DNA from: Acidovorax sp. 107
GTDB taxonomy: Bacteria; Pseudomonadota; Gammaproteobacteria; Burkholderiales; Burkholderiaceae_C
Assembly (NCBI RefSeq): GCF_003058055.1
Contig: NZ_QBTZ01000001.1
Span: 4,234,001 to 4,298,000, forward strand
DNA: 64,000 nucleotides
Reading direction: 5' to 3'
Shown in pieces: positions 53,364 to 63,612 of the stretch. Position 1 is the stretch's first letter, and each line of letters starts with the position of its first letter. A model generated the notes under the pieces. The model made no database searches. It saw nothing but the letters and a program-made list of their open reading frames with translations, and was not told the DNA's origin. The translations under genes and the position numbers were made by a program.

Positions 53364-54260
53364 TCAGGATCCTCCTTCGTTCCAACGCAGCTTCTTGCGC
53401 AGTGTGGCGAAGTAGTTCCATCCCTGGGGGTGCAGAAACCGCACACGATGCTCTGACCTTTTGACGAGGATGCGGTCGCCATGCAGCAAGGATGCAAGCG
53501 ACTGCATGTCAAAGTTTGCGCTGACATCGCGCCCGCTCACCACTTCCACAGCTACTTCCGTTGCGTCAGAGAGCACGATGGGACGATTGGACAACGTATG
53601 TGGTGCGATCGGAACCAGTACCCAGCCCGGGATGGAGGGGTGGAGCATGGGGCCGCCCGCCGACAGAGAATATGCCGTGGAGCCGGTGGGAGACGCAATG
53701 ATGAGGCCGTCTGCCCTCTGGTTAGCCACAAACTGCCCACCCACTTCAACGCGCAGCTCCACCATGCCCGATGTGGCCCCTCGGTTCACCACCACGTCGT
53801 TCATGGCCAAGGCTTCAAACACCACGCGCTCGTCGCGTACAACGGTGGCATGCATCAGAGGTCGTTGGTCTTCTTCGTAGGCCCCTCGCAGCATGGGCGG
53901 CAACGTGGTCTGGTAGGTATCGAAAGGAATATCCGTAATGAACCCGAGCCGGCCCTGGTTGATGCCGATCAGTGGCGTTCCGAAACGTGCGAGGCGCCGG
54001 CCAATCCCCAGCATTGTCCCATCTCCTCCCACCACCAGTCCCAGATCGCACCGTGCGCCGATCTGGTCTACATTCAGAGACGGGTAGTGTGTCAGTCCGG
54101 TGTTGCTGGCGGTTTCCGCTTCCAGCACCACCTCACAGCCCTGCCGCTCCAAGAAATGCGCAATGTCTTCCAAAGCCCGGCGAGAACCGTCACCGGAAGT
54201 GCCTGCTGCTGAAGTCTGATACTTGCCTATAAGTGCGACATGGCGGAAATTGGACGTCAT
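53364..54260 (-). CDS. nadK: NAD kinase
   Basis: A 298-residue essential enzyme that makes NADP from NAD. The [11 protein letters not shown] motif is near residue 79, with [23 protein letters not shown], and [13 protein letters not shown] near 190. It is the first gene of a nadK-recN-rapZ operon. Its start codon lies only about 15 bases from the nearest prophage gene, so its native promoter has probably been cut away or rebuilt by the inovirus insertion. Confidence 0.96.
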
Positions 54261-54298
54261 CGCGAAATTACATCATTAAACAGATGTGAGTTTCGCGA
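54260..54298. other. Nested inverted repeat at the nadK-prophage junction
   Basis: TCGCGAAA (54260-54267) and TTTCGCGA (54291-54298) form a perfect 8-bp outer stem. ACATC (54270-54274) and GATGT (54283-54287) form an inner stem. One arm lies in host DNA at the nadK start and the other in phage DNA. It could be a terminator for the leftward phage genes, an mRNA structure over the nadK start, or part of attL. Confidence 0.5.
54267..54277. other. Candidate attL (left prophage junction)
   Basis: The interval between the nadK start and the phage regulator stop contains ATTACA (54267-54272) and, overlapping it, ATCATT (54272-54277). Each word also occurs at the right junction. Short identical cores are usual for serine recombinases. 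Confidence 0.5.
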
Positions 54299-54539
54299 CG
54301 CGCTTCATCATCCGCGTCTTGCATGCGCTGTCTCGTTCTGATTCCAGTGCGGCAACCACTATCCAAGTCTTCACATCCTCGCCCAGCTCGTCTGCCAGTG
54401 CTCCTGCTATTGCCGGGCTGATATGGCCCCTTTGTCTCGCGTTATGAAGTGCGTTCCTGTTCAGGTTCAGTTTTTCGTGCCAGTACTGCGCTGGCTGCAT
54501 CGATAGGGCTTGTTCCAATAGGGTCATTGTTGACAGCAT
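54276..54539 (-). CDS. DUF3693 / HTH phage regulator
   Basis: An 87-residue protein with a Cro/CI-like helix-turn-helix core (YWHEKLNLNRNALHNARQRG then HISPAIAGALADELGED), as in DUF3693 proteins of inoviruses. The ATG at 54539 follows AAAGGAGC. It is the likely repressor of the phage, acting on the three inverted repeats at 55040-55116. Its gene overlaps the end of the DUF2726 gene by 98 bases in another frame and ends next to nadK. The regulator role is inferred. Confidence 0.7.
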   Translation of the reverse strand: MLSTMTLLEQALSMQPAQYWHEKLNLNRNALHNARQRGHISPAIAGALADELGEDVKTWIVVAALESERDSACKTRMMKRVAKLTSV

Positions 54540-55020
54540 TTTTCGCTCCTTTGAGGGTGCTTTTGTCCAGTGGGAAGTCGCGTTGCAGTTGGTCGGTGTC
54601 GGGGATGTTGCCGTATCGGATCACGCGATATCCAGCGTTCGTTAGTAAGGCGTCTCTCGCTGCGTCTTCTTCCGTTTTTTTCTTGTGTGAATCGTCGTCC
54701 AGTTCGATAACCGCTAGCACTTGCAGGGATTTGTCGCAGACAACGAAGTCTGCAATTTTTCTGTCGAAGCTGTTTCTCGTCGCTCTTGACTTTGCAGATA
54801 GCAAAGCTCCGAAAGAAACCTGCGCCAGGATTTTTGATTCAGGCAAAGACGTCGTTAGTCGGTTGTACATAGCCTCTTCGCGCTGTGTGAGAAGACGCTT
54901 TCTTTTTGGCCGTTCTTGCTCTTCGCCGTCTGTCGTGGTTTCTGTGCTTTTCTTTTTCAGCGCGGCTATCACGATTGCCGCAATCAGCACCAGCACAACC
55001 AGAAATATCAAGGTTTTCAT
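54442..55020 (-). CDS. DUF2726 membrane-anchored nuclease-like protein
   Basis: A 192-residue protein with an N-terminal transmembrane helix (about residues 3-20, LIFLVVLVLIAAIVIAAL), a short charged linker (about 23-45) and a DUF2726 domain. That domain shows the strand pattern of PD-(D/E)xK nucleases: KIADFVVCDKSLQVLAVIEL followed by DDDSHKKK, then RDALLTNAGYRVIRYGNIPD. It is the first leftward phage gene, overlapping the regulator gene. It might act on DNA at the membrane, for example against superinfecting phage. No function is proven. Confidence 0.7.
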   Translation of the reverse strand: MKTLIFLVVLVLIAAIVIAALKKKSTETTTDGEEQERPKRKRLLTQREEAMYNRLTTSLPESKILAQVSFGALLSAKSRATRNSFDRKIADFVVCDKSLQVLAVIELDDDSHKKKTEEDAARDALLTNAGYRVIRYGNIPDTDQLQRDFPLDKSTLKGAKNAVNNDPIGTSPIDAASAVLARKTEPEQERTS

Positions 55021-55039
55021 GGATCAAGCGTTGTAATTT

Positions 55040-55116
55040 TGCAATCAATGTGATTGCAGTGTTGCAATCATGGTGATGGCGAGTCTATTCTCCCGTCTGC
55101 AATCAATGTGGTTGCA
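55040..55116. promoter_or_regulatory. Triple inverted-repeat operator region of the prophage
   Basis: Three sites share the form TGCAATCA-N3-TGATTGCA: 55040-55058 (perfect), 55063-55081 (right arm TGATGGCG, 6 of 8) and 55098-55116 (right arm TGGTTGCA, 7 of 8). Centres are 23 and 35 bp apart. They lie between the leftward DUF2726-regulator pair and the rightward replication and capsid genes, exactly where a lysogeny repressor should bind. A rightward promoter TTGCAA (55062-55067) - 16 bp - TCTATT (55084-55089) overlaps the second site. Confidence 0.75.
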
Positions 55117-55131
55117 TGAGTCGGAGCCGCC

Positions 55132-55497
55132 ATGACCTCAAACCCGCCCTTTTGCCTACCCCCAGCCACAAAAGGCGCTGCACGCGCTGTGGCGGCTCCT
55201 GCAGCGCCTGCGCTGGGGGTGTGCACCCGCTCTTACGTCAAGGGCTCCACCGCTTCTCTCCCCTGGCCTCGCGTCGAGATTCGTGGGCAATCCGGCGCCG
55301 GGATGCTCAACGGTTGGCACTCCATCGCAACCCTTGTTGATGACATGCCGCAGCGCGCCGCAGCCGCGCCCAGCAAGCGGAGCGCGGGCGCGGTAGCGGA
55401 GCGCGGTGCTATCAATTTTGGGGGGTGCGTAGCACCTCAGACAGCTTCGGTCCCCGATGGTAATCACGGGGACAACTTTCCAGAGTCAGCCGCATGA
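55132..55497 (+). CDS. Hypothetical phage protein at the start of the rightward operon
   Basis: A 121-residue Ala/Pro-rich protein of unknown function. It begins at an ATG preceded by GGAG and ends in an ATGA overlap with the Rep gene, which supports real translation and coupling to rep. No domain is recognised. Composition is low-complexity, so it may be fast-evolving or unstructured. Confidence 0.55.
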   Translation: MTSNPPFCLPPATKGAARAVAAPAAPALGVCTRSYVKGSTASLPWPRVEIRGQSGAGMLNGWHSIATLVDDMPQRAAAAPSKRSAGAVAERGAINFGGCVAPQTASVPDGNHGDNFPESAA

Positions 55498-56717
55498 CCC
55501 ATCCCACATCGCTCGTTCTAGAGGGCAATGAGGTCAAGCTCCGTTTGCAAGCGGAGCGCGTCCAAACCGGCTCGCCCGTTCATGTCGATTGGCTGCGCTT
55601 CACAGTCAATCTGCGGTTCGCGCCCATTCCCACCGTTGAGCATCTTTTCCCGCCCGCCCAGGCATCGGAATTCGATCTGCGCTCAGAGCACCAACTGAGC
55701 GAAGACGATCGCCGCCGCGCAAAGCTCTGCCACCTGCTGCGCGACATTCCAGACCCTGACTTTGCCGCCAGCACACAAGCGCTTGAGCTGGCTAACAACG
55801 TCTGCGACATCCTCGGCGAAGGCTTCACCGTAGACCCCGAAATGAAGAAGGGTCACGACTTCTACCGCCACCGCTGGAGCATCCTGCGCGCTGGCAATGA
55901 ATGCGGCTGGGTCGGCTTCCTCGCCTCCGGTGAAAGCCCACGCCAGCGTGCCCAGTCGAAGACCATTCATTGCAACCTGTACGGCGTCGCCTGCACGTTT
56001 GCTGCCCCAGGCTGGGCACCACGCATGGCCGACTACATGGACGAACACCGCGCCCTGGTCACGCGCTGCGATCTGGCCCTGGACTTCTTCGACGGCATCA
56101 GCGGTGGCATGGACCGCGTTGCCACTGACTACGACGCCGGGGCCATGGACCACTACGGCCACCGCCCTGAACACAACTGTGTGGGCGCTTGGCGTGCTGG
56201 TGGTGTGGGCCGCTCCTTCTACTTCGGCAGCAAGGCCGCAGGCAAGCAAACCAACGTCTACGACAAGGGCGTGCAGCTCTACGGCAAACAGGACGCTACC
56301 GGCTGGCAGCGCATCGAGTTGCGCTATGGAAACCAAAAGCGCCTGCTGCCCACGGACGTTCTGCGCAGGCCCGCCGACTTCTTCGCAGGTGCCAGCGACT
56401 GGCATGCACAGATGCTGGCTGAGCACGGCGCCATTGCAACGCCTGAGCCCATCAAAACAGAGCCACGCCTGCCCCTTGAAACCCTCATGGCCGAGTGCAC
56501 GCGCAACGCCCGTTGGTTCTTCTCCACCGCTGGCAAATCAGCCGCGCTCGCGTTCCTCTACATGGACCGCGAAACCCTCATGCAATTCATTGAGAACTGC
56601 GCCGAGATGCCCGGTCGCCTTGCCAAGTTCAAGCGCTCCGAAGTCGAGCGCATCTATCAGCAGATGTTCAAAAAGATCTCGGGCTCCGGTGCTGGCCACA
56701 CCGCGTTTGCCCACTAA
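55494..56717 (+). CDS. Inovirus replication initiation protein (Rep_trans family)
   Basis: A 407-residue rolling-circle replication initiator, the functional analogue of filamentous phage gene II / RstA. Family blocks: VHVDWLRFTVNLRF near residue 28, ALVTRCDLALDFFDG near 188, GRSFYFGSKAAGKQTNVYDK near 240 and WQRIELRYGNQKRLLPTDVL near 270. It should nick the plus origin in the intergenic region. It is followed after 22 bases by the ssDNA-binding protein gene. Confidence 0.9.
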   Translation: MTHPTSLVLEGNEVKLRLQAERVQTGSPVHVDWLRFTVNLRFAPIPTVEHLFPPAQASEFDLRSEHQLSEDDRRRAKLCHLLRDIPDPDFAASTQALELANNVCDILGEGFTVDPEMKKGHDFYRHRWSILRAGNECGWVGFLASGESPRQRAQSKTIHCNLYGVACTFAAPGWAPRMADYMDEHRALVTRCDLALDFFDGISGGMDRVATDYDAGAMDHYGHRPEHNCVGAWRAGGVGRSFYFGSKAAGKQTNVYDKGVQLYGKQDATGWQRIELRYGNQKRLLPTDVLRRPADFFAGASDWHAQMLAEHGAIATPEPIKTEPRLPLETLMAECTRNARWFFSTAGKSAALAFLYMDRETLMQFIENCAEMPGRLAKFKRSEVERIYQQMFKKISGSGAGHTAFAH

Positions 56718-56739
56718 CCCAGGCCACGAAGGACTAACC

Positions 56740-57060
56740 ATGAAGATGACCAGCAAAGCCGTGTTGCACGGCCTCAAGCAATCCAAGGGCGACTATGAGG
56801 GCCGCGCCTTCGACTCCACCACCTTCCACCTGTCGGTGGACATTGCCCAGTCCTCCAGCGGCGAAAGCATCGGCGTGGTCACTCGCCCGTTCAAGCTGGG
56901 TGACTCCACCGAGTTCCAAAAGTGGGCACACCTCAAAAATTCGTGGCCCCTCGGCGGCGTGATGTGTGAATGTGAGTTCGACATCGTGGCCGGTGCGGAC
57001 AACACCACAAAGCTCACGCTGCTGGCGATCAAACCCGCCGCCCAGGCCAAGGCCGCGTAA
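56740..57060 (+). CDS. Putative inovirus ssDNA-binding protein (gene V analogue)
   Basis: A 106-residue protein that starts after an AAGGA site. Its size, its place right after Rep, and the alternating beta-type pattern (TFHLSVDIAQ, GVMCECEFDIVAG, TKLTLLAIKP) fit the small single-strand-binding proteins that coat inovirus DNA and switch replication to export. There is no strong sequence signature, so the call is by position and form. Confidence 0.65.
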   Translation: MKMTSKAVLHGLKQSKGDYEGRAFDSTTFHLSVDIAQSSSGESIGVVTRPFKLGDSTEFQKWAHLKNSWPLGGVMCECEFDIVAGADNTTKLTLLAIKPAAQAKAA

Positions 57061-57076
57061 GGCACCAAGGCACGCC

Positions 57077-57298
57077 ATGCGCAACGTGATCCAGTCCCGC
57101 ACAACAGGCGCTTTCCTCGCGCCCTCATACGAGGACGGCCAACCGGAGTGGACCATGTTGCTCTGCGAAGCCGCCATTGTCGAAGACCTCGAAACCTGCG
57201 TGCAGCTTATCGAGGACCACACCGAACCGTTCCACCGACCCCAAGTCGTGGACCTCGATGACCTCTACAAAAAGCAGGAGCCACACCTTGGAAATTGA
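57077..57298 (+). CDS. Small phage hypothetical protein
   Basis: A 73-residue soluble acidic protein (SYEDGQPEWTMLLCEAAIVE then DLETCVQLIEDH). I recall similar proteins at this place in betaproteobacterial inoviruses, but no function. It starts 16 bases after the ssDNA-binding gene and overlaps the next gene by 11 bases. Confidence 0.6.
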   Translation: MRNVIQSRTTGAFLAPSYEDGQPEWTMLLCEAAIVEDLETCVQLIEDHTEPFHRPQVVDLDDLYKKQEPHLGN

Positions 57299-57494
57299 CC
57301 TCTCGTTCTTCGCCCAGCGCGTTGCCATGCTGGCCCTACTGGCGGGCTTCGTTGGCGGTCTGCTGTTCGTCCTGGTGCATGGCGCAGTAGTCGCCCTGGC
57401 TGAGCGTCTGCGCTCACGCGCCAACACTGCCGAACGCGTCGCCCAGGCACGCATTCGGCAGCAATCAATCATGCGGGCCATGCCTCGTGGCTGA
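57288..57494 (+). CDS. Small phage membrane protein
   Basis: A 68-residue protein with one long hydrophobic helix (VAMLALLAGFVGGLLFVLVH) and a basic C-terminal tail rich in Arg. The TTG at 57288 is the probable start, because CAGGAG lies upstream and no ATG fits. It may be a minor virion protein like pVII or pIX, or an assembly factor. It overlaps both neighbours, a typical compact phage layout. Confidence 0.6.
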   Translation: MEIDLSFFAQRVAMLALLAGFVGGLLFVLVHGAVVALAERLRSRANTAERVAQARIRQQSIMRAMPRG

Positions 57495-57699
57495 CCCAAC
57501 TGTCATCGAATGCCCCAGCACCTGCACGGTGACTGTGGTGCATGAATTAAGCCTCCCTCCGCTGCAACTCGATACAGCGGATGGAGCAGCCATCGCGGGC
57601 GCCGTCCTCGCGGTCTGGGTAGTCGGCTGGGCATTTCGCATGCTCGTCCGCTCCTTGAACATCGACGGCAATTCATCAACCACCAATGAGGAAAACTGA
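57487..57699 (+). CDS. Small phage membrane protein (minor coat candidate)
   Basis: A 70-residue protein starting at GTG 57487 inside the previous gene. The N-terminal part has two cysteines (VIECPSTCTV), and a transmembrane helix follows (AAIAGAVLAVWVVGWAFRML, about residues 34-53). It ends just before the major coat gene. Proteins like this precede pVIII in several inoviruses; the exact role is unknown. Confidence 0.6.
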   Translation: MADPTVIECPSTCTVTVVHELSLPPLQLDTADGAAIAGAVLAVWVVGWAFRMLVRSLNIDGNSSTTNEEN

Positions 57700-57700
57700 A

Positions 57701-57919
57701 ATGAACCGCTTCAACATGCAAACCCGTCGTGCAGCCCAGATCGCCGCTGCCTCTGCCCTCGTCCTGGCTTCGCAATCGCACGCTGCTGCCATCGATGTGA
57801 CCCCCGTCACTGCCGACATTAGCGCTCAGGCCGCACCAGTGGCCGCCATCGGTGCTGCTGTGCTGGTGCTCTTCGTGGGCATCAAGGCCTTCAAGTGGGT
57901 GCGTAAGGCTCTGTCCTAA
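57701..57919 (+). CDS. Inovirus major coat protein (pVIII-like)
   Basis: A 72-residue precursor. A signal peptide (AAQIAAASALVLASQSHA) leads to a mature protein of about 40 residues. That has an acidic amphipathic start (IDVTPVTADISAQ), a hydrophobic helix (AAVLVLFVGIKAFKWV) and a basic C-terminus (RKAL), the usual design for DNA-facing lysines and arginine. The start at 57701 follows GAGGAAAACTGAA. This is the main capsid subunit. Confidence 0.88.
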   Translation: MNRFNMQTRRAAQIAAASALVLASQSHAAAIDVTPVTADISAQAAPVAAIGAAVLVLFVGIKAFKWVRKALS

Positions 57920-58004
57920 GCCCTCACTGCATGCGCTCCCTGACCGGCCGGCAGGGGCCTTGCAAAAGCTCACGCGGGGTGGGCTTCTTCAAGGTGCAAA
58001 ACAC

Positions 58005-58064
58005 ATGGGCCTCTTCGTCATCATCGCCGTCTTGGGGGCCGCATGGTTCATCTTTACCGCCTGA
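58005..58064 (+). CDS. Tiny hydrophobic ORF upstream of and overlapping pIII
   Basis: A 19-codon frame encoding MGLFVIIAVLGAAWFIFTA, preceded by AAGGTG at good spacing. Its last 22 bases overlap the start of pIII in another frame. It could be a very small virion cap protein, or a leader peptide that couples translation to pIII. Chance cannot be excluded at this length. Confidence 0.35.
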   Translation: MGLFVIIAVLGAAWFIFTA

Positions 58065-59497
58065 TCGCGGCGATGGTCATTGCCGTCTTCTCGGCCACTA
58101 CGTTCGCTGCCATCGCGCCTGTTGTGAAGTATCGCGACAACCTCGGGCGTGTCGATACGGTCAGCGGTCTGGTTGCGTGGTGGCAGGCTTATGACCCGGT
58201 TTTTCCGTGTACCTCGCCGTACACCAACAAGGCTGCGACATGGGAAGCCCGGAACGTCACGGCGCAGAAGTTTGATCTCTACAAAGTCGGGTCCAACTGT
58301 CTCGGCACAGGTACATACAACACCCTAGTGCAGAGTCCCACCGCTTCGGGCTCTGCGTGTCCTACTGGCTCCGCCCTGTCCGGTGGCACTTGCCAATGTC
58401 TTTCACCGCTGGTTGAGGTTGGAGGTGAATGCAAGCTCCCTGCTTGTCCTGTCGGCCAGCATGAGGAAGGCGGTGCATGCGTTCCTGATGCCTGCAAGCC
58501 GAATGAAACCCGCGTCAATGGCGTGTGCGTTCCTGAGCCTCCCTGTCCAACTGGGCAGACCCGGGTTAACGGCAAGTGCGTACCCATGAAGTGCCCTTCT
58601 CAGGGAACGGTGTCGGACCAGTGGTACGAGCTCACATCACCGGGCACGAGTGCGACATGCCTGTTCAACAGCCAGGACAACACCTACTGCACCATGACGG
58701 TGAAGCCCAGCGTTATCGCTTCCAGCGGCGGCAGCAACACGTATATGGGCGGCTATGGCGTTTACACCGGTGGCACCTGTGGCCCTTCTGAGCCCGGAAA
58801 GCCCACGCCTGTGGACCCCAATAAACCTGATGGCGACCCCAATAACGGAACCAAGCCACCCGGCCCGAATGACCCCAAGCCGGACACAAGGCCCGGTGGC
58901 AGTCCCGGCGGCCCCGGCAGCAATCCAACGCCGCCAAACCCTGATGGCACATGCCCTGCTGGCACCTACAAATCGAACGGCGGTTGCTACCCCAAAGACC
59001 CGCCCACGCAGCCGCCAGACAATGACGGCAAGTGCCCTAGCGGGTACATCAAGGTGGGCGATAAGTGCGTCCCCCTGATGCCGCCAGAAGACAAAGACCC
59101 TGACGACAAAGACCCCTCGTCGTTCGGAGGCCAGTGCGAGGCGATCACCTGCGACGGCGACGCCATTCAGTGCGCCATAGCCCGCGACCAATACAAACGG
59201 TCCTGCCAGCTCATGGAAAAGGAAAGCGCTGAATCTCAGCTCTACGGCTCCAATAAGGGCAAGGAGGGCAATCAGACTGGGGAGCTTCCGGGCAATGAAA
59301 CCATCAGCCTGTCGGGCCGCATCGATACCTCTGATGCGCTCGGCGGTGGCTCCTGCTTTGGCAATCTGAACGTCACTGTGTGGGGCCAGTCGGTGGTGCT
59401 GCCACTCGCTGACCTGTGCCAATACCTCGCCATGCTCGGCAACATCTTGGTGGCCGTGTCGATGCTCATGGCCGCCCGCATCGTCACTAGGGGATAG
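58043..59497 (+). CDS. Inovirus adsorption/attachment protein (pIII-like) with repeated C-x10-C modules
   Basis: A 484-residue minor coat protein at the virion tip. A signal peptide (about 1-23) is followed by an N-terminal domain and five C-x10-C modules (starting at residues 106, 119, 135, 151, 168). Next come a further Cys-containing domain, a Pro/Gly/Asp linker (about 246-302), two more C-x10-C modules (304 and 331), and a C-terminal anchor domain with a hydrophobic helix (NILVAVSMLMAARIV). The layout matches pIII: receptor-binding part, flexible linker, membrane anchor. The Cys modules probably form small disulfide loops. The binding target (pilus or Tol) is unknown. Confidence 0.85.
   Translation: MVHLYRLIAAMVIAVFSATTFAAIAPVVKYRDNLGRVDTVSGLVAWWQAYDPVFPCTSPYTNKAATWEARNVTAQKFDLYKVGSNCLGTGTYNTLVQSPTASGSACPTGSALSGGTCQCLSPLVEVGGECKLPACPVGQHEEGGACVPDACKPNETRVNGVCVPEPPCPTGQTRVNGKCVPMKCPSQGTVSDQWYELTSPGTSATCLFNSQDNTYCTMTVKPSVIASSGGSNTYMGGYGVYTGGTCGPSEPGKPTPVDPNKPDGDPNNGTKPPGPNDPKPDTRPGGSPGGPGSNPTPPNPDGTCPAGTYKSNGGCYPKDPPTQPPDNDGKCPSGYIKVGDKCVPLMPPEDKDPDDKDPSSFGGQCEAITCDGDAIQCAIARDQYKRSCQLMEKESAESQLYGSNKGKEGNQTGELPGNETISLSGRIDTSDALGGGSCFGNLNVTVWGQSVVLPLADLCQYLAMLGNILVAVSMLMAARIVTRG
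58358..58579 (+). repeat. Five C-x10-C modules within pIII
   Basis: Residues 106-179 of pIII hold five copies of a 12-residue C-x10-C unit with a G-G or N-G just before the second Cys, for example CPTGQTRVNGKC. Spacers are 1, 4, 4 and 5 residues. The spacing is invariant while the sequence varies, as expected for disulfide loops under diversifying selection. Confidence 0.8.
58952..59068 (+). repeat. Two further C-x10-C modules within pIII
   Basis: Residues 304-315 (CPAGTYKSNGGC) and 331-342 (CPSGYIKVGDKC) repeat the same unit after the Pro/Gly-rich linker. Confidence 0.8.
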
Positions 59498-59501
59498 AAC
59501 C

Positions 59502-59801
59502 ATGCCAATGTTTGTTGCTGCCATCGGCGGCATGCTCATCAACCTTGTGGGCACCCTCGCGGGCCGCATCCTGATTGCTCTTGGCATCAGCGTTGTGACC
59601 TACACGGGTGTCTCTGCTTCACTCGATTGGATGAAAGCTGGCGCAGTCTCCGCGCTCGGTGGTCTGCCTGCCGACATGATCGGGCTGATCGCTTTCATGA
59701 AGGTGGGCGTCTGCATCAGCATCATCACCAGTGCCATTGCTGCACGTGCCATCGTCAGCGGCCTTAGCGGCGACAGCTTCAAGAAGTGGGTGATGAAATG
59801 A
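59502..59801 (+). CDS. Inovirus minor coat protein pVI-like (DUF2523)
   Basis: A 99-residue membrane protein with three hydrophobic segments (LINLVGTLAGRILIALGISV, ADMIGLIAFMKVGVCISII, and a terminal amphipathic part). It is the DUF2523 type found between pIII and Zot in many inoviruses and thought to cap the virion with pIII. Its stop overlaps the Zot start (ATGA). Confidence 0.85.
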   Translation: MPMFVAAIGGMLINLVGTLAGRILIALGISVVTYTGVSASLDWMKAGAVSALGGLPADMIGLIAFMKVGVCISIITSAIAARAIVSGLSGDSFKKWVMK

Positions 59802-60970
59802 TCTACCTCACCACTGGTGCGAACGGCGCAGGCAAAACGCTGCTGACTCTCAAGGATGTGCGGGCGCAGCAGCTCAAGGAAAACCGCCCGGTTTACTACC
59901 ATGGCTTTGACATGGACGAGGCCAAAGCGGCTGAATTCGGCTGGCAGAAGTTTGACCCCAAGGATTGGCAAGGCCTCCCTGATGGGTCGATCTGCATCAT
60001 GGACGAGTGCCAGAACGAATTCCCGTTGAGGCGCTCCGGCTCGGAGGTGCCTGAGTACGTGCAGGCCATCGCTCAGCACCGTCGCCGCCGCGGTTTTGAC
60101 TTCTGGATGATCTGCCCGCACCCCTCGCTGGTCGATGTGTTCGTGCGCCGTCTGATCGATAAGCCATCATGGCATCGGCACCTAAAGCGTGCCTTCGGCG
60201 CTGATGTGGTCAGCGTCCTTCGCTTCTCGGCACCTGACATGAAGTGTGAAGAGCCCGGCGCAGGCGCTCGCGGCGAAGTGTCCATGGTGGGCTATCCCAA
60301 GGAGGTCTACAGCTGGTATCGCTCGGCCAGTCTCCACACCGGGAAAAGGAAAATCCCTCGCGCCGTGTTCGTCCTGGCTGCGTGCGCCATCGCTGTTCCC
60401 TCGGCCCTGTACTTCGCCATCACCGGCGTTTACAAAAACGCCACTAAGCAGGCCAAGCCCGCTACAGAAACGATAGCAAACGTGCCAGGCGGAAATGCTC
60501 CTCAAAACGGGCGGCAGGTTGCCCAGGTGATGACCGCTGCGGAATATGTCGACCACCGCACCCCGCGCCTGAAAGACTTCCCGCAGACGGCCCCGGCCTA
60601 CGACGAGGTCACCAAGCCCACTGAGGCCCCGTACCCTGCGGCCTGTGTCCAGATGGGCAAAACCTGCAAGTGCTACACGCAGCAGGCCACGCTATTGCAA
60701 GTGTCCGGCGCTGCATGTCTCCAGATCGTGCAACAGGGCTTCTTCATGGACTGGAAAACCGCCCCCAGGGGTGAATTCAGTCCAAGGGATAGGGGCGACT
60801 ATCGGCAAGGCCGGGAAGGCCATCAGCAGCCCCAGCAAGTGGCCCAGCTGGACCCGCAACGCACAGTCCCTGTGCCATCGCCTGCGGCCCGACCTGAGCC
60901 CGTGCAGAGTCAGTACCTCCAAGGCCTCGCTGCGCGCAATGCTCAGGTGCGTTCTAGCCTCACGCAATGA
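59798..60970 (+). CDS. Zot-like inovirus assembly ATPase (pI)
   Basis: A 390-residue membrane protein that drives phage extrusion. The N-terminal Zonular occludens toxin domain has Walker A GANGAGKT (residues 7-14) and a Walker B-like SICIMDECQNEFP near 63-75. AQHRRRRGFDFWMICPHPSL near 93 is family-typical. One transmembrane helix (about 188-207) is followed by a periplasmic C-terminal region with a Cys-rich KTCKCYTQQATLLQVSG block. It is the most conserved inovirus marker and confirms the prophage identity. Confidence 0.93.
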   Translation: MIYLTTGANGAGKTLLTLKDVRAQQLKENRPVYYHGFDMDEAKAAEFGWQKFDPKDWQGLPDGSICIMDECQNEFPLRRSGSEVPEYVQAIAQHRRRRGFDFWMICPHPSLVDVFVRRLIDKPSWHRHLKRAFGADVVSVLRFSAPDMKCEEPGAGARGEVSMVGYPKEVYSWYRSASLHTGKRKIPRAVFVLAACAIAVPSALYFAITGVYKNATKQAKPATETIANVPGGNAPQNGRQVAQVMTAAEYVDHRTPRLKDFPQTAPAYDEVTKPTEAPYPAACVQMGKTCKCYTQQATLLQVSGAACLQIVQQGFFMDWKTAPRGEFSPRDRGDYRQGREGHQQPQQVAQLDPQRTVPVPSPAARPEPVQSQYLQGLAARNAQVRSSLTQ

Positions 60971-60971
60971 T

Positions 60972-61184
60972 TCAGCCGCGCCGTGTTTGCTCTCTGGCTT
61001 CGGCCTCATCTTCAAGCATTAGCACCCATCGGTAGCCCTCTGGTGCCTCTGGTCGGCTGAACGGCGATGGCCCTCCGTTCTTTGGTTCCTTGTCAGCAAA
61101 AAACAGCAGATAGGCGGCTTGAATGAGGCCCATGCCTGATAGGGCTAGCAGCGCGTAGTACGTGAAATAGGGGAGTTGCTTCAT
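60972..61184 (-). CDS. Small membrane protein convergent with Zot
   Basis: A 70-residue protein with one transmembrane segment (YYALLALSGMGLIQAAYLLFF) and a charged cytosolic tail. It reads opposite to Zot and ends two bases from the Zot stop. The start at 61184 is the first ATG before the hydrophobic segment. No family is recognised. It is a candidate accessory gene of the prophage. Confidence 0.45.
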   Translation of the reverse strand: MKQLPYFTYYALLALSGMGLIQAAYLLFFADKEPKNGGPSPFSRPEAPEGYRWVLMLEDEAEAREQTRRG

Positions 61185-61242
61185 GCCCTTAAAACTAGCA
61201 CAGCCTTTCAAATGTCGCCAAAACGGATCTGGCCATGACAAT

Positions 61243-61605
61243 TCAGGCGCTGACAACGATAGGGCAGCGGGCCAGCGGACGCATTGCGCGCATGCGGTCG
61301 ATGTGCCCGCCGAAGCCCTTCCGCTTCACCGGCTCAGAGAACACCAGCGCAACTTGCGCAGCCTTCACCAGCTTGCCCAGGTCGCGCACCTTCTTCGCCA
61401 GCTCTCGCGCCCAGCTCGGGGCAGTCTTGCGGACTGGATAGGCCACCCGGCCCGCTGCCTTGAACGCCGCACCACGCTCGGCCCTGATCGCCCGCAGGAG
61501 GCGTGTCGTAGGCCGCGACGTAGCCCACACCAGCAAGCGCCCGAACTGCAAAGGCATCTGCAGCGCCAGAGCTTCAGGAAATTTGCGGTAGTTGATTGCG
61601 ATCAT
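61243..61605 (-). CDS. Basic hypothetical protein in the phage accessory region
   Basis: A 120-residue Arg/Lys-rich protein preceded by AAGGGGAAC before its ATG at 61605. It has no recognisable domain. The composition (RPTTRLLRAIRAERG, KKVRDLGKLVKAAQ) suggests nucleic-acid or membrane-surface contact. It lies on the minus strand between the structural genes and the intergenic region, where inoviruses often carry cargo genes. Confidence 0.45.
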   Translation of the reverse strand: MIAINYRKFPEALALQMPLQFGRLLVWATSRPTTRLLRAIRAERGAAFKAAGRVAYPVRKTAPSWARELAKKVRDLGKLVKAAQVALVFSEPVKRKGFGGHIDRMRAMRPLARCPIVVSA

Positions 61606-62007
61606 GGTGTTCCCCTTCAGGTGTACCGGGCCCCTAGATTCCGAGCCGGACAACTGTTGTCTGTTGCCCGTGCAAGCTGGCCTTGCTTGCACCGTTCCCC
61701 TGAGTTCTTCGCCGTGCCATTAGCGGTGCCGGGATTGAGTTCCGGAGGGGGGAGGGTTTGTAAAGCGCAGCTTTATGGATTCCCCCCGCAGGAACTCAAA
61801 GCGCCCTCGGCGCGGTCCTGGCTTAGCGTTGGCCGAAGAGGCGAAGAAATCTGGGGAATGGTGCTGGGCACTACCTTTCACGGGCAACGGACGCCGCGCG
61901 GCGAGCGCCTAAAGCTGCGAAGCAAGCTCAAGCCAATTGAAGTCCTCGATAGCGCGCACCGTTTGATACATTCGTGCTATCAAAATTACAGCTAACTGAT
62001 TACCGTT
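61606..62007. other. Phage intergenic region: probable replication origin and packaging signal
   Basis: A 402-base non-coding stretch with several inverted repeats. TGCAAG/CTTGCA (61671-61676, 61686-61691) is a small one. A large nested hairpin spans 61735-61799. Near the right end TGCTATCAAAATTACAGCTA (61973-61992) resembles the first half of host repeat family A. Inovirus genomes normally have one main intergenic region carrying the plus origin and packaging hairpin, and this is the best candidate. Confidence 0.6.
61735..61799. other. Large three-tier hairpin, candidate packaging signal
   Basis: Outer arms TTGAGTTCC (61735-61743) and GGAACTCAA (61791-61799) pair perfectly. Middle arms GGGGGG (61747-61752) and CCCCCC (61782-61787) pair, and an apical TAAAGC/GCTTTA hairpin (61761-61766, 61770-61775) closes it. 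Extended hairpins of this type mark the packaging signal of filamentous phages. Confidence 0.6.
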
Positions 62008-62598
62008 TTGACCATCTACGGCTACGCCCGCGTTTCGACAACTGAGCAAAACACCGCGACACAGCTCGCGGCATTCAAGCGTGCGGGCATCGAAAAAATC
62101 GTTCAGGAAAAGCGCTCAGCGGTAAAGCAGCGCCCAGAGTTGGAGAGGCTGTTGACCACCATGGTCAAAGGTGACGTGCTGGTGGTCTACAAGCTTGATC
62201 GGCTGGCCCGTTCTGTCTCTCACTTCGTCAAGGTTTTTGAGCATCTGAAAGGGAAGGGTGTCGGCTTCAGGTCGCTGACAGAGTCAATCGAAACCGATAC
62301 GCCGCAGGGGCGCATGTTCTTGCACCTGCTGTCTGCTTTTGCAGAGTTTGAGCGTGAATTGATCCGGGAGAGGTGTCTTGCTGGTCAGCGGGCAGCTCGT
62401 GCCGCTGGGAAGACATGGGGCCGAAAGCGGGCTCTGGCAGATGATGATGTTGCCCAGGCCGCAGCGTGTTGGCGTTCGGGCTGGTACGACCAGCGGACTC
62501 TTGCGGATATGCTGAGCGTTTCCATCAGTAGCCTGCGCGACCACATCCACCGCCATGAGGGCAGGGGGCGTTGGGCGAAGACTCGATTACAAAAGTAA
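62008..62598 (+). CDS. Small serine recombinase (resolvase/invertase type), probable phage integrase
   Basis: A 196-residue serine recombinase. The catalytic Ser10 lies in YGYARVSTTEQN, and other active-site residues are in KLDRLARSVSHF near 70 and AEFERELIRERCLAG near 120. A C-terminal helix-turn-helix (about 150-185, QRTLADMLSVSISSLRDHIH) binds DNA. The probable start is TTG at 62008. It is the rightmost phage gene, next to the junction, and likely catalyses integration in place of host XerCD. Its last codons lie in the attR interval. Confidence 0.88.
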   Translation: MTIYGYARVSTTEQNTATQLAAFKRAGIEKIVQEKRSAVKQRPELERLLTTMVKGDVLVVYKLDRLARSVSHFVKVFEHLKGKGVGFRSLTESIETDTPQGRMFLHLLSAFAEFERELIRERCLAGQRAARAAGKTWGRKRALADDDVAQAAACWRSGWYDQRTLADMLSVSISSLRDHIHRHEGRGRWAKTRLQK

Positions 62599-62605
62599 AA
62601 TCATT
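62586..62605. other. Candidate attR (right prophage junction)
   Basis: It contains ATTACA (62586-62591) and ATCATT (62600-62605), each matching a word at the left junction. If ATTACA is the core, the last recombinase codons are host DNA. If ATCATT is the core, both flanking phage genes are complete inside the phage. Confidence 0.5.
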
Positions 62606-62607
62606 CC

Positions 62608-63612
62608 ATGCTCGATGACCGTGCCAAGTTGTTGCTCAAAGCCCTGGTCGAGCGTTACATCGCTGATGGGCAACCCGTGGGGTCTCGAACCCTTTCCCGT
62701 GCGTCGGGGTTGGATTTGTCGCCGGCCACGATCCGCAATGTCATGGCTGACCTCGAAGAACTGGGACTGATTGCAAGTCCGCACACTTCTGCAGGTCGCA
62801 TCCCTACTGCGCGCGGGTACCGGTTGTTTGTGGACACCATGTTGACGGTACAGCGAGAGTCTGTAATGCCACCACAACTGGCCCCAGAACAGCCACAAAA
62901 GGTCATTGCAAACGCTGCGCAGCTTCTATCCAGCCTCTCCCAGTTCGTCGGTGTGGTGATGGCACCTCGGCGTACCTCGGTCTTTCGGCACATCGAGTTT
63001 CTGCGACTCTCTGAAAAGCGGTTTCTGGTCATCATCGTGTCCCCTGAGGGCGACGTCCAGAATCGCGTGATTTTTACCGAGGTGGACTATTCGCAGTCTC
63101 AACTGATAGAGGCCTCCAACTTTCTGAATGCACACTACGCAGGGCTTGCGATGGAGCAGGTGCGAGAGCGCTTGAAGTCCGAGGTCGATGTGTTGCGTGG
63201 GGAGATCGCATCGCTCATGCAGGCTGCGGTCAACGTGGGTTCTGAGGCGCTTTCAGAAGCGCAGGACGAGGTGGTGATCTCTGGCGAACGCAACCTTCTG
63301 TCAGTCAGCGACTTCTCCAGCGACATGGGTAATCTGCGCAGAGCTTTTGACCTGTTCGAGCAGAAGACACAGATTCTTCGGCTTCTGGATATTTCCAGCC
63401 AGGCGGAAGGTGTGCGCATCTACATCGGTGGAGAGAGCCAAGTGGTGCCATTTGAGGAGCTTTCGATCGTGAGCTCGCCCTACGAGGTCGATGGAAAGGT
63501 GGTGGGAACGCTGGGCGTGATAGGCCCCACGCGCATGCCCTACGACCGCATGATCCAGATTGTGGACATCACTTCCAAGCTGGTCTCCAACGCCCTCAGC
63601 CACCGCAAGTAA
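62608..63612 (+). CDS. hrcA: Heat-inducible transcription repressor HrcA
   Basis: A 334-residue repressor of CIRCE-controlled chaperone genes. The N-terminal winged helix ([46 protein letters not shown]) and [20 protein letters not shown] are diagnostic. The C-terminal GAF-like domain includes [19 protein letters not shown] near 272. Only about 2-20 bases of host DNA separate it from the prophage. A -10-like TAAAAT (62596-62601) lies seven bases before the ATG. Confidence 0.96.

What the first reader, a model, noticed from the sequence alone, without database searches (positions are those of the whole stretch)
54267..62605. Complete inovirus that uses a serine recombinase and sits in the tiny nadK-hrcA gap
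Seen: Zot, pVI-like, pIII-like, pVIII-like and Rep genes in order, plus a small serine recombinase at the right end and no Xer/dif-like or tRNA target. Known: most inoviruses hijack XerCD or carry transposases; Ralstonia RSM phages carry a resolvase-like enzyme and integrate at a tRNA gene. Inference: this is a related but distinct lineage with a non-tRNA intergenic target between an essential kinase gene and a heat-shock repressor gene. It may be an undescribed Comamonadaceae phage.
Basis: partly seen in the sequence, partly recalled or inferred. Interest (0 to 1): 0.85.

Follow-up and report, generated by a model that had tools for sequence, protein, structure and literature searches.

The report
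Filamentous prophage in a shared promoter
A complete-looking filamentous phage has inserted itself, probably by its own small recombinase, into the 28-base stretch between two divergent housekeeping genes, and comparison with relatives suggests that such phages change their landing site by exchanging the DNA-reading half of that recombinase.

Summary
An 8,319-nt inovirus provirus (core to core, 54277-62596) sits between nadK and hrcA. Of 34 genomes of the genus with a readable hrcA start, 28 have an empty gap of 28-29 bp. The two junctions share only the 4-bp core TAAA, the start of a conserved -10-like element (TAAAAT-N6-ATG of hrcA) that insertion rebuilds. At the right end the core holds the recombinase's stop codon; at the left end a host base completes the repressor gene's stop codon. 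Inoviruses whose recombinases are as little as 48% identical to this one use the same site in at least five genus groups. nadK-hrcA recombinases have catalytic domains of two lineages (one clade rejected, p-AU 5e-5), yet their C-terminal DNA-binding domains form one clade (100/99). Their nearest catalytic kin carry other DNA-binding domains and sit at tRNA-Ser, in the analogous cyaY-lptM gap, or inside a permease gene. The best reading is natural retargeting by exchange of the DNA-binding domain with the adjacent attP. Architecture is like phi-RSM phages, the target is not. Integration activity, promoter function and leaderless transcription are inferred, not shown.

The parts
53364..54260 (-). 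nadK, host NAD kinase; left host flank
   Evidence: NF002561 E 1e-147; adjacent to hrcA in congeners
54268..54280 (.). attL: host left half TTACATCAT plus core TAAA (core 54277-54280)
   Evidence: Comparison with empty sites
54276..54539 (-). HTH repressor-like protein; in the prophage its stop codon includes a host-derived base
   Evidence: phrog_31301 E 7e-32; local junction read; function inferred
54442..55020 (-). DUF2726/DUF559 protein with an N-terminal hydrophobic stretch, function unknown; overlaps the HTH ORF
   Evidence: PF10881 E 5e-18, PF04480 E 2e-9
55040..55116 (.). Three near-copies of TGCAATCAATGTGATTGCA, possible operators
   Evidence: (D6), sequence; role inferred
55494..56717 (+). 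Rep, replication initiation protein
   Evidence: PF02486 E 3e-18; phrog_453 E 6e-56
56740..57060 (+). 106-aa protein, pV-like by position only
   Evidence: Homologue read in L033; no match in NCBIfam or Pfam
57487..57699 (+). Small coat-like membrane protein
   Evidence: phrog_4644 E 3e-8, phrog_9110 E 4e-8; Pfam coat family only E 0.02, below cut-off
57686..57919 (+). pVIII-like major coat protein
   Evidence: PF05356 Phage_Coat_B E 3e-16
58043..59497 (+). pIII-like adsorption protein, named by position and size
   Evidence: phrog_4352 E 3e-37, of unknown function
59502..59801 (+). pVI-like minor coat protein
   Evidence: PF10734 E 6e-16; phrog_1242 E 1e-20
59786..60970 (+). Zot-domain pI assembly ATPase
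   Evidence: PF05707 E 3e-15; phrog_197 E 5e-65
60972..61256 (-). 94-aa ORF, unknown
   Evidence: no PHROG match
61243..61692 (-). 149-aa ORF, unknown, 97% identical in the second inovirus of the genome
   Evidence: No Pfam or NCBIfam match
62008..62598 (+). Small serine recombinase (196 aa, TTG start): catalytic domain about 1-140, C-terminal DNA-binding domain about 141-196; stop codon TAA lies in the attR core
   Evidence: PF00239 E 5e-42; best PDB match DNA-invertase 4m6f E 6e-38
62587..62607 (.). attR: phage left half TTACAAAAG, core TAAA (62596-62599), host right half ATCATTCC; rebuilds TAAAAT-N6-ATG
62608..63612 (+). hrcA, host heat-shock repressor; right host flank
   Evidence: TIGR00331 E 1e-91

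Best explanation
This is an integrative filamentous phage. Its own resolvase/invertase-type recombinase joins attP to attB within the 4-bp core TAAA, probably at the dinucleotide AA. attP lies between the convergent 3' ends of the recombinase and repressor genes. attB is the conserved divergent promoter-like gap of nadK and hrcA. The core is the first four bases of hrcA's -10-like TAAAAT, and the left half keeps nadK's -10-like ATTACA, so insertion rebuilds both elements and breaks neither gene. Target choice lies in the recombinase's C-terminal DNA-binding domain, which together with the neighbouring attP has been exchanged between inoviruses whose catalytic domains differ. Shown: junctions, empty sites, repeated use of the site, contradictory domain trees. 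Inferred: catalysis, exact cleavage dinucleotide, promoter function, leaderless transcripts, and the order of the exchange.
For: Exact junctions against 28 empty sites of the genus. In all eight loci whose two ends could be read the host side of the left core is CAT and the core is TAAA, or TAGA at both ends in G163. The site pattern occurs in 83 of 399 family genomes, one place each, and not in G000, G163, G190, G199 or G345, whose sites are occupied. The 14 recombinases with this DNA-binding domain whose right host flank is held (window, L033, L034, L035, L036, L076-L079, L086, L088, L091, L098, L099) stand upstream of hrcA. Control: of the 30 loci, the 25 others, all with other DNA-binding domains where I aligned them, show no hrcA within their roughly 1.5-kb flanks. 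Catalytic/DNA-binding identity: window vs L077 47/66, vs L080 68/27, vs L081 71/29; L077 vs L082 80/21. Catalytic tree rejects the 18 rows as one clade (dlnL 97.7, p-AU 5e-5); the DNA-binding tree joins all 18 (100/99) and rejects the catalytic grouping (dlnL 62.5, p-AU 5e-6). L082 lies in the analogous cyaY-lptM gap with core TACA, the start of TACAAT-N6-ATG. The genome's second inovirus has a 13-bp tRNA-Ser(GCT) core.
Against: No excised circle or attP was seen: 0 matches in the own genome, one match in viral contigs in a stretch without phage genes. The DNA-binding alignment has 55 usable columns for 57 rows and several long branches; groups were named after a first tree, so the p-values lean low. 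Four of the 18 rows (L084, L090, L092, L093) are viral contigs that end at the recombinase, so their target is assumed. L087, a near-copy of L086 left out of the trees, has about 500 bases after the recombinase that hold another ORF and no hrcA; its host flank is not held. Only 2 of 5 lineage-B phages (L077, L079) share the window's repressor; L099 is at 46%, L098 and L078 have no match, and L076 of lineage A has none. The sequence upstream of hrcA's -10-like element is replaced by phage DNA, so the rebuilt promoter may not be equivalent. L081 sits inside a permease gene, so promoter targeting is not general.
Confidence: 0.83

Rival explanations
1. An ordinary phi-RSM-like phage whose recombinase has simply diverged, with its target, along a single lineage; no domain exchange.
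For: Architecture recombinase-attP-reversed repressor as in phi-RSM1 (passages of PMC3816273). Within lineage A target and catalytic clade agree.
Against: Catalytic and DNA-binding trees contradict each other with strong support; L077 and L082 are 80% identical in the catalytic part and 21% in the DNA-binding part.
Confidence: 0.08
2. Convergence: the DNA-binding domains of two recombinase lineages became alike because they bind the same DNA.
For: Both lineages use the same conserved site; the domain is short.
Against: 66-67% identity between L077 and window/L036, all 18 rows in one clade at 100/99; the adjacent repressor is also shared in L077 (70%) and L079 (81%) while Rep is 32% and 29%.
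Confidence: 0.07
3. The prophage is a dead or domesticated fixture, brought in by homologous recombination.
For: Relics exist: G022 keeps only a fragment of the DNA-binding domain and the right junction; L034 has partial Rep and Zot. No circle was seen.
Against: The core genes of the window's phage are open; G004, with HrcA 99% identical, is empty; the core position is the same at eight loci.
Confidence: 0.1

Closest known systems
Ralstonia phages phi-RSM1, phi-RSM3 and phi-Rs551
   Same: Inovirus with its own resolvase/invertase-type integrase; attP between integrase and reversed repressor gene in phi-RSM1 (PMC4471427, PMC3816273 and PMC5608472, passages seen). The genome's second inovirus and L080 use tRNA-Ser genes like them.
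   Different: Their attB core is 13 bp of tRNA-Ser(UCG); here the target is a divergent gap and the core is 4 bp. RSM proteins were not compared: the accessions tried are not in the collection.
phi-RSS0 and XacF1
   Same: Integration changes the 3' end of a phage regulator gene (PMC3816273 passages; XacF1 abstract start of PMC5666396 in listing).
   Different: They use host XerCD at dif and carry attP inside the regulator gene.
Inovirus catalogue of Roux et al. 2019 (PMC6813254) and IMG/VR
   Same: Relatives of this recombinase are in IMG/VR; the paper lists serine recombinases and says integration genes are among those most often exchanged (passages).
   Different: The att sites it counted are direct repeats of at least 10 bp, so a 4-bp core would not be called; the passages seen name no nadK-hrcA site and no domain exchange. 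Its supplements were not seen.
Hin/Gin-type DNA invertases
   Same: Same enzyme family; best solved match DNA-invertase 4m6f.
   Different: Used here between phage and chromosome, not for inversion (role of invertases recalled); alignment to 4m6f is weak beyond about residue 140.

Membership tests
Inovirus (filamentous phage) | Zot/pI-type assembly ATPase | tested here: met
   PF05707 and phrog_197
Inovirus (filamentous phage) | Rolling-circle-type Rep and small coat proteins | tested here: met
   PF02486, PF05356, PF10734
Inovirus (filamentous phage) | Filamentous particles released without lysis | not testable with these tools
   Needs culture
phi-RSM-type phage | Phage-coded small serine recombinase | tested here: met
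   PF00239
phi-RSM-type phage | attP between integrase and convergent repressor gene | tested here: met
   repressor role inferred
phi-RSM-type phage | attB at tRNA-Ser with a 13-bp core | tested here: not met
   attB in the nadK-hrcA gap, 4-bp core; no tRNA at the ends
phi-RSM-type phage | Protein similarity to RSM1/RSM3 | not tested
   Records not held
XerCD/dif-using inovirus | att core is the host dif site | tested here: not met
   Core is TAAA between nadK and hrcA; the host's dif itself was not searched

The most novel reading that the evidence does not exclude
Inoviruses of this bacterial family carry a swappable targeting cassette: the 3' end of the recombinase gene coding the DNA-binding domain, the attP beside it, and in some phages the repressor. 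Exchange of the cassette moves a phage between tRNA-Ser genes and the -10 elements of divergent, possibly leaderless promoters of housekeeping genes. The phage core copies the first four bases of the -10 element, so insertion rebuilds the promoter, and its upstream part becomes phage DNA that could tie nadK or hrcA expression to the prophage.
Probability: 0.5. Interest if true: 0.78.

Novelty: new variant of a known kind. Interest (0 to 1): 0.62.

Why it matters
It gives a natural set of matched recombinases, similar catalytic domains with different DNA-binding domains and the reverse, with their natural att sites, so how small serine recombinases change target in evolution becomes directly testable. 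It also shows a kind of integration site that searches for long direct repeats miss: a 4-bp core inside a divergent promoter-like gap that is rebuilt by insertion.

Tried and rejected
Direct-repeat search of the window region did not show the att core. Phage-collection searches: no DNA match; Zot relatives below 60% identity in 49 of 49 records; Rep in 24 records, none over 80% of the protein; recombinase in 571 records, of which the 30 listed are mostly tailed-phage invertases; HTH none. An attP pattern in viral contigs gave one match in a stretch without phage genes; in the own genome none. A functional longer repressor in the circular form is not favoured: of the six loci with an HTH match (window, L033, L034, L036, L077, L079) five read on by 69, 69, 69, 45 and 20 residues and one (L079) stops at once. 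An exact CIRCE consensus search in the window found none. The reading that lineage equals target was dropped after the first tree. The far end of L080 was missed by two repeat scripts and found later as TGGCGGAGACTGTG at 2355-2368. The G010 cyaY-lptM insert (L214, about 1.1 kb) holds a TPR-repeat ORF and no phage gene that I saw; left unexplained. Dropped before the domain trees, 5 of 62 rows: L056 and L047 (long branches), L085, L087 and L089 (copies or near-copies). Rows in no target group stayed in the trees. My first script for the cyaY-lptM gap read 24 of 30 loci; one search read 27 of 29.
Full report
Observation. The window lies in a 5.1-Mb genome of two contigs. No call names it; it is probably Acidovorax, because the genus flanks match named Acidovorax records. 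Between nadK (start codon at 54260, minus strand) and hrcA (start at 62608, plus strand; both named by NCBIfam) lies a gene block with Rep, coat proteins, a pIII-like protein, pVI, a Zot-domain pI ATPase and a small serine recombinase.

Boundaries. In congeners the nadK and hrcA start codons are separated by a 28-bp gap whose commonest form is CGCGAAATTACATCATTAAAATCATTCC. In the window the left junction reads ATTACATCAT-TAAA-CAGATG and the right one GATTACAAAAG-TAAA-ATCATTCC-ATG. Only TAAA is shared, and core-to-core distance is 8,319 nt. Of the 36 genomes of the genus, two (G012, G025) gave no hrcA match. Of the 34 others, 28 have the 28-bp (27) or 29-bp (1) gap, three have longer gaps (163, 168, 199 bp) without a recombinase match, two hold an inovirus (the window's genome and G003), and one (G022) keeps only a relic of the recombinase's DNA-binding domain with an intact right junction. 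G003 and the named A. delafieldii 2AN locus L036 are probably the same genome: both contigs are 31,226 bases long and give the same matches.

Repeated use of the site. The one scan of named genomes, with strict peptide patterns, found four relatives of the recombinase, and all four stand directly upstream of hrcA: Acidovorax sp. FJL06, an Acidovorax MAG, Paracidovorax konjaci and A. delafieldii 2AN. In 399 genomes of the family, 66 hold a recombinase match at E 1e-30 or better; loci were made for 30 matches. Five of these 30, the window's own included, have hrcA in the locus; the other 25 do not. The four new ones belong to four further genus groups and have nadK at the other end: G163 (65% identity), G190 (54%), G345 (51%) and G199 (48%). 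In all eight loci with both ends readable the base triplet before the left core is CAT; before the right core it is AAG in four, and CAG, CAC, CAT and CGG in one each. In G163 both cores read TAGA. The recombinase stop codon lies in the core in the window, L033, L034, L035, L036, L077, L086 (TAA) and L076 (TAG); in L088 the frame runs through the core and stops just after it; in L091, L078 and L079 it stops before it. The distance from recombinase to hrcA ranges from about 10 bp to about 350 bp (L078).

The target is a conserved promoter-like site. The pattern ATTACATCAYTAAAAT-N6-ATGCT occurs in 83 of 399 family genomes, one place each, and not in the occupied genomes G000, G163, G190, G199 and G345; the reversed control pattern gave 0 in every row. 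Most other genomes also lack the exact pattern, so its absence shows variation of the site and not occupation. TAAAAT stands six bases before the hrcA ATG, where a -10 element of a leaderless transcript would lie; ATTACA, read on the other strand as TGTAAT, stands six bases before the nadK ATG. I see no Shine-Dalgarno-like stretch. Promoter names are inference from position; no transcript data were available. Insertion keeps both hexamers and replaces what lies beyond them.

A second gap of the same kind. L082, an inovirus in genome G016 of the same genus, lies between cyaY (TIGR03421) and an lptM gene (NF047847 for the G010 copy). Of 29 other genus loci, 27 gave a readable gap, and in 24 of these the start codons are 12 bp apart, CAT-TACAAT-N6-ATG; the other three measure 10, 11 and 15 bp. 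The junctions of L082 are TCAT-TACA-GTATTC and ATAAG-TACA-ATTTGCGC-ATG. The core is again the first four bases of a -10-like hexamer.

Other targets. The second inovirus of the window's genome (L067) is bounded by two copies of CCGTTTCCGCCAA, one at the 3' end of tRNA-Ser(GCT). L080 (G001) is bounded by TGGCGGAGACTGTG, one copy in tRNA-Ser(TGA). L081 lies inside an ABC permease gene: the two halves match positions 1-169 and 169-300 of one 300-position model.

Domain exchange. A whole-protein tree put the nadK-hrcA recombinases in two places. I then split the alignment near residue 140. Catalytic/DNA-binding identity is 47/66 between window and L077, 68/27 between window and L080, 71/29 between window and L081, and 80/21 between L077 and L082. 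With 57 of 62 rows the catalytic tree rejects the 18 nadK-hrcA rows as one clade (dlnL 97.7, p-AU 5e-5), and L082 falls inside lineage B, with support 99/76 there. The DNA-binding tree joins all 18 with 100/99 support and rejects the catalytic grouping (dlnL 62.5, p-AU 5e-6). Fourteen of the 18 stand upstream of hrcA; the other four (L084, L090, L092, L093) are viral contigs that end at the recombinase. L087, left out as a near-copy of L086, has a shortened C-terminus followed by about 500 bases with another ORF and no hrcA; its host flank is not held. Caveats: 55 columns, long branches, groups named after a first look.

Why attP can travel with the DNA-binding domain. In the circle attP lies directly after the DNA-binding end of the recombinase gene, so a crossover inside that gene can move domain and site together. 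The repressor next to attP is 70% (L077) and 81% (L079) identical to the window's, against 32% and 29% for Rep. L099 has 46%, and L098 and L078 no match; so in lineage B the repressor is clearly shared in 2 of 5. The backbone moves too: L182, with the L080-type recombinase, has pVI 92% and Zot 84% identical to the window's phage, and L033 shares Rep and recombinase (93% each) but has another structural module.

Repressor 3' end. In the prophage a base from the host flank completes the repressor's stop codon. Of the six loci with an HTH match, the codon across the phage junction reads TAC in five, and the frame runs on 69, 69, 69, 45 and 20 residues; in L079 it is a stop. The variable length speaks against a conserved function. 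A comparable change at a regulator's 3' end is described for phi-RSS0 (PMC3816273 passages).

Known work. Papers seen: PMC4471427, PMC3816273, PMC5608472 and PMC6813254 as passages; PMC5666396 and PMC4197438 only as listing with the start of the abstract. Searches for nadK or hrcA with inovirus, Acidovorax with inovirus or filamentous phage, recombinase domain swaps, and small serine recombinases in filamentous phages listed no paper that I recognised as describing this site or natural retargeting of inovirus recombinases. The library holds only open-licence papers, listings were capped, and no supplements were read. Engineered chimeras of large serine integrases are known (PMC4197438).

Noticed in passing
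window 61243-61931 and L067 11905-12592: The two inoviruses of one genome share about 690 bp at 92% DNA identity around the 149-aa ORF and the stretch after it, and a further 441 bp at 81%, although most other shared pieces are at 69-76% or short: recent exchange, or a shared origin or packaging region.
   Followed up: partly
window 55040-55116: Three near-copies of a palindromic repeat upstream of the DUF2726-HTH genes, possible operators.
   Followed up: no
L214 1402-2535 (G010): The cyaY-lptM gap of another congener holds about 1.1 kb with a TPR-repeat ORF and a right junction AAAAGTACAAT like that of the L082 prophage.
   Followed up: partly
L023, L032, L072: Three congeners have 163-199 bp between nadK and hrcA without a recombinase match but with the hrcA-side TTAAAAT kept: possible scars or other small elements.
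   Followed up: no
window 54442-55020: A DUF2726/DUF559 protein with an N-terminal hydrophobic stretch beside the repressor, also in some relatives (L034, L049, L079, L080); role unknown.
   Followed up: no
L081 (G205): A related recombinase and its element split an ABC permease gene, and the genome holds a second recombinase match with the same score.
   Followed up: partly
L087 7664-8165: A viral contig with a near-copy of the L086 recombinase has extra DNA with a small ORF after it instead of hrcA, perhaps cargo between recombinase and right junction, as in L080.
   Followed up: partly
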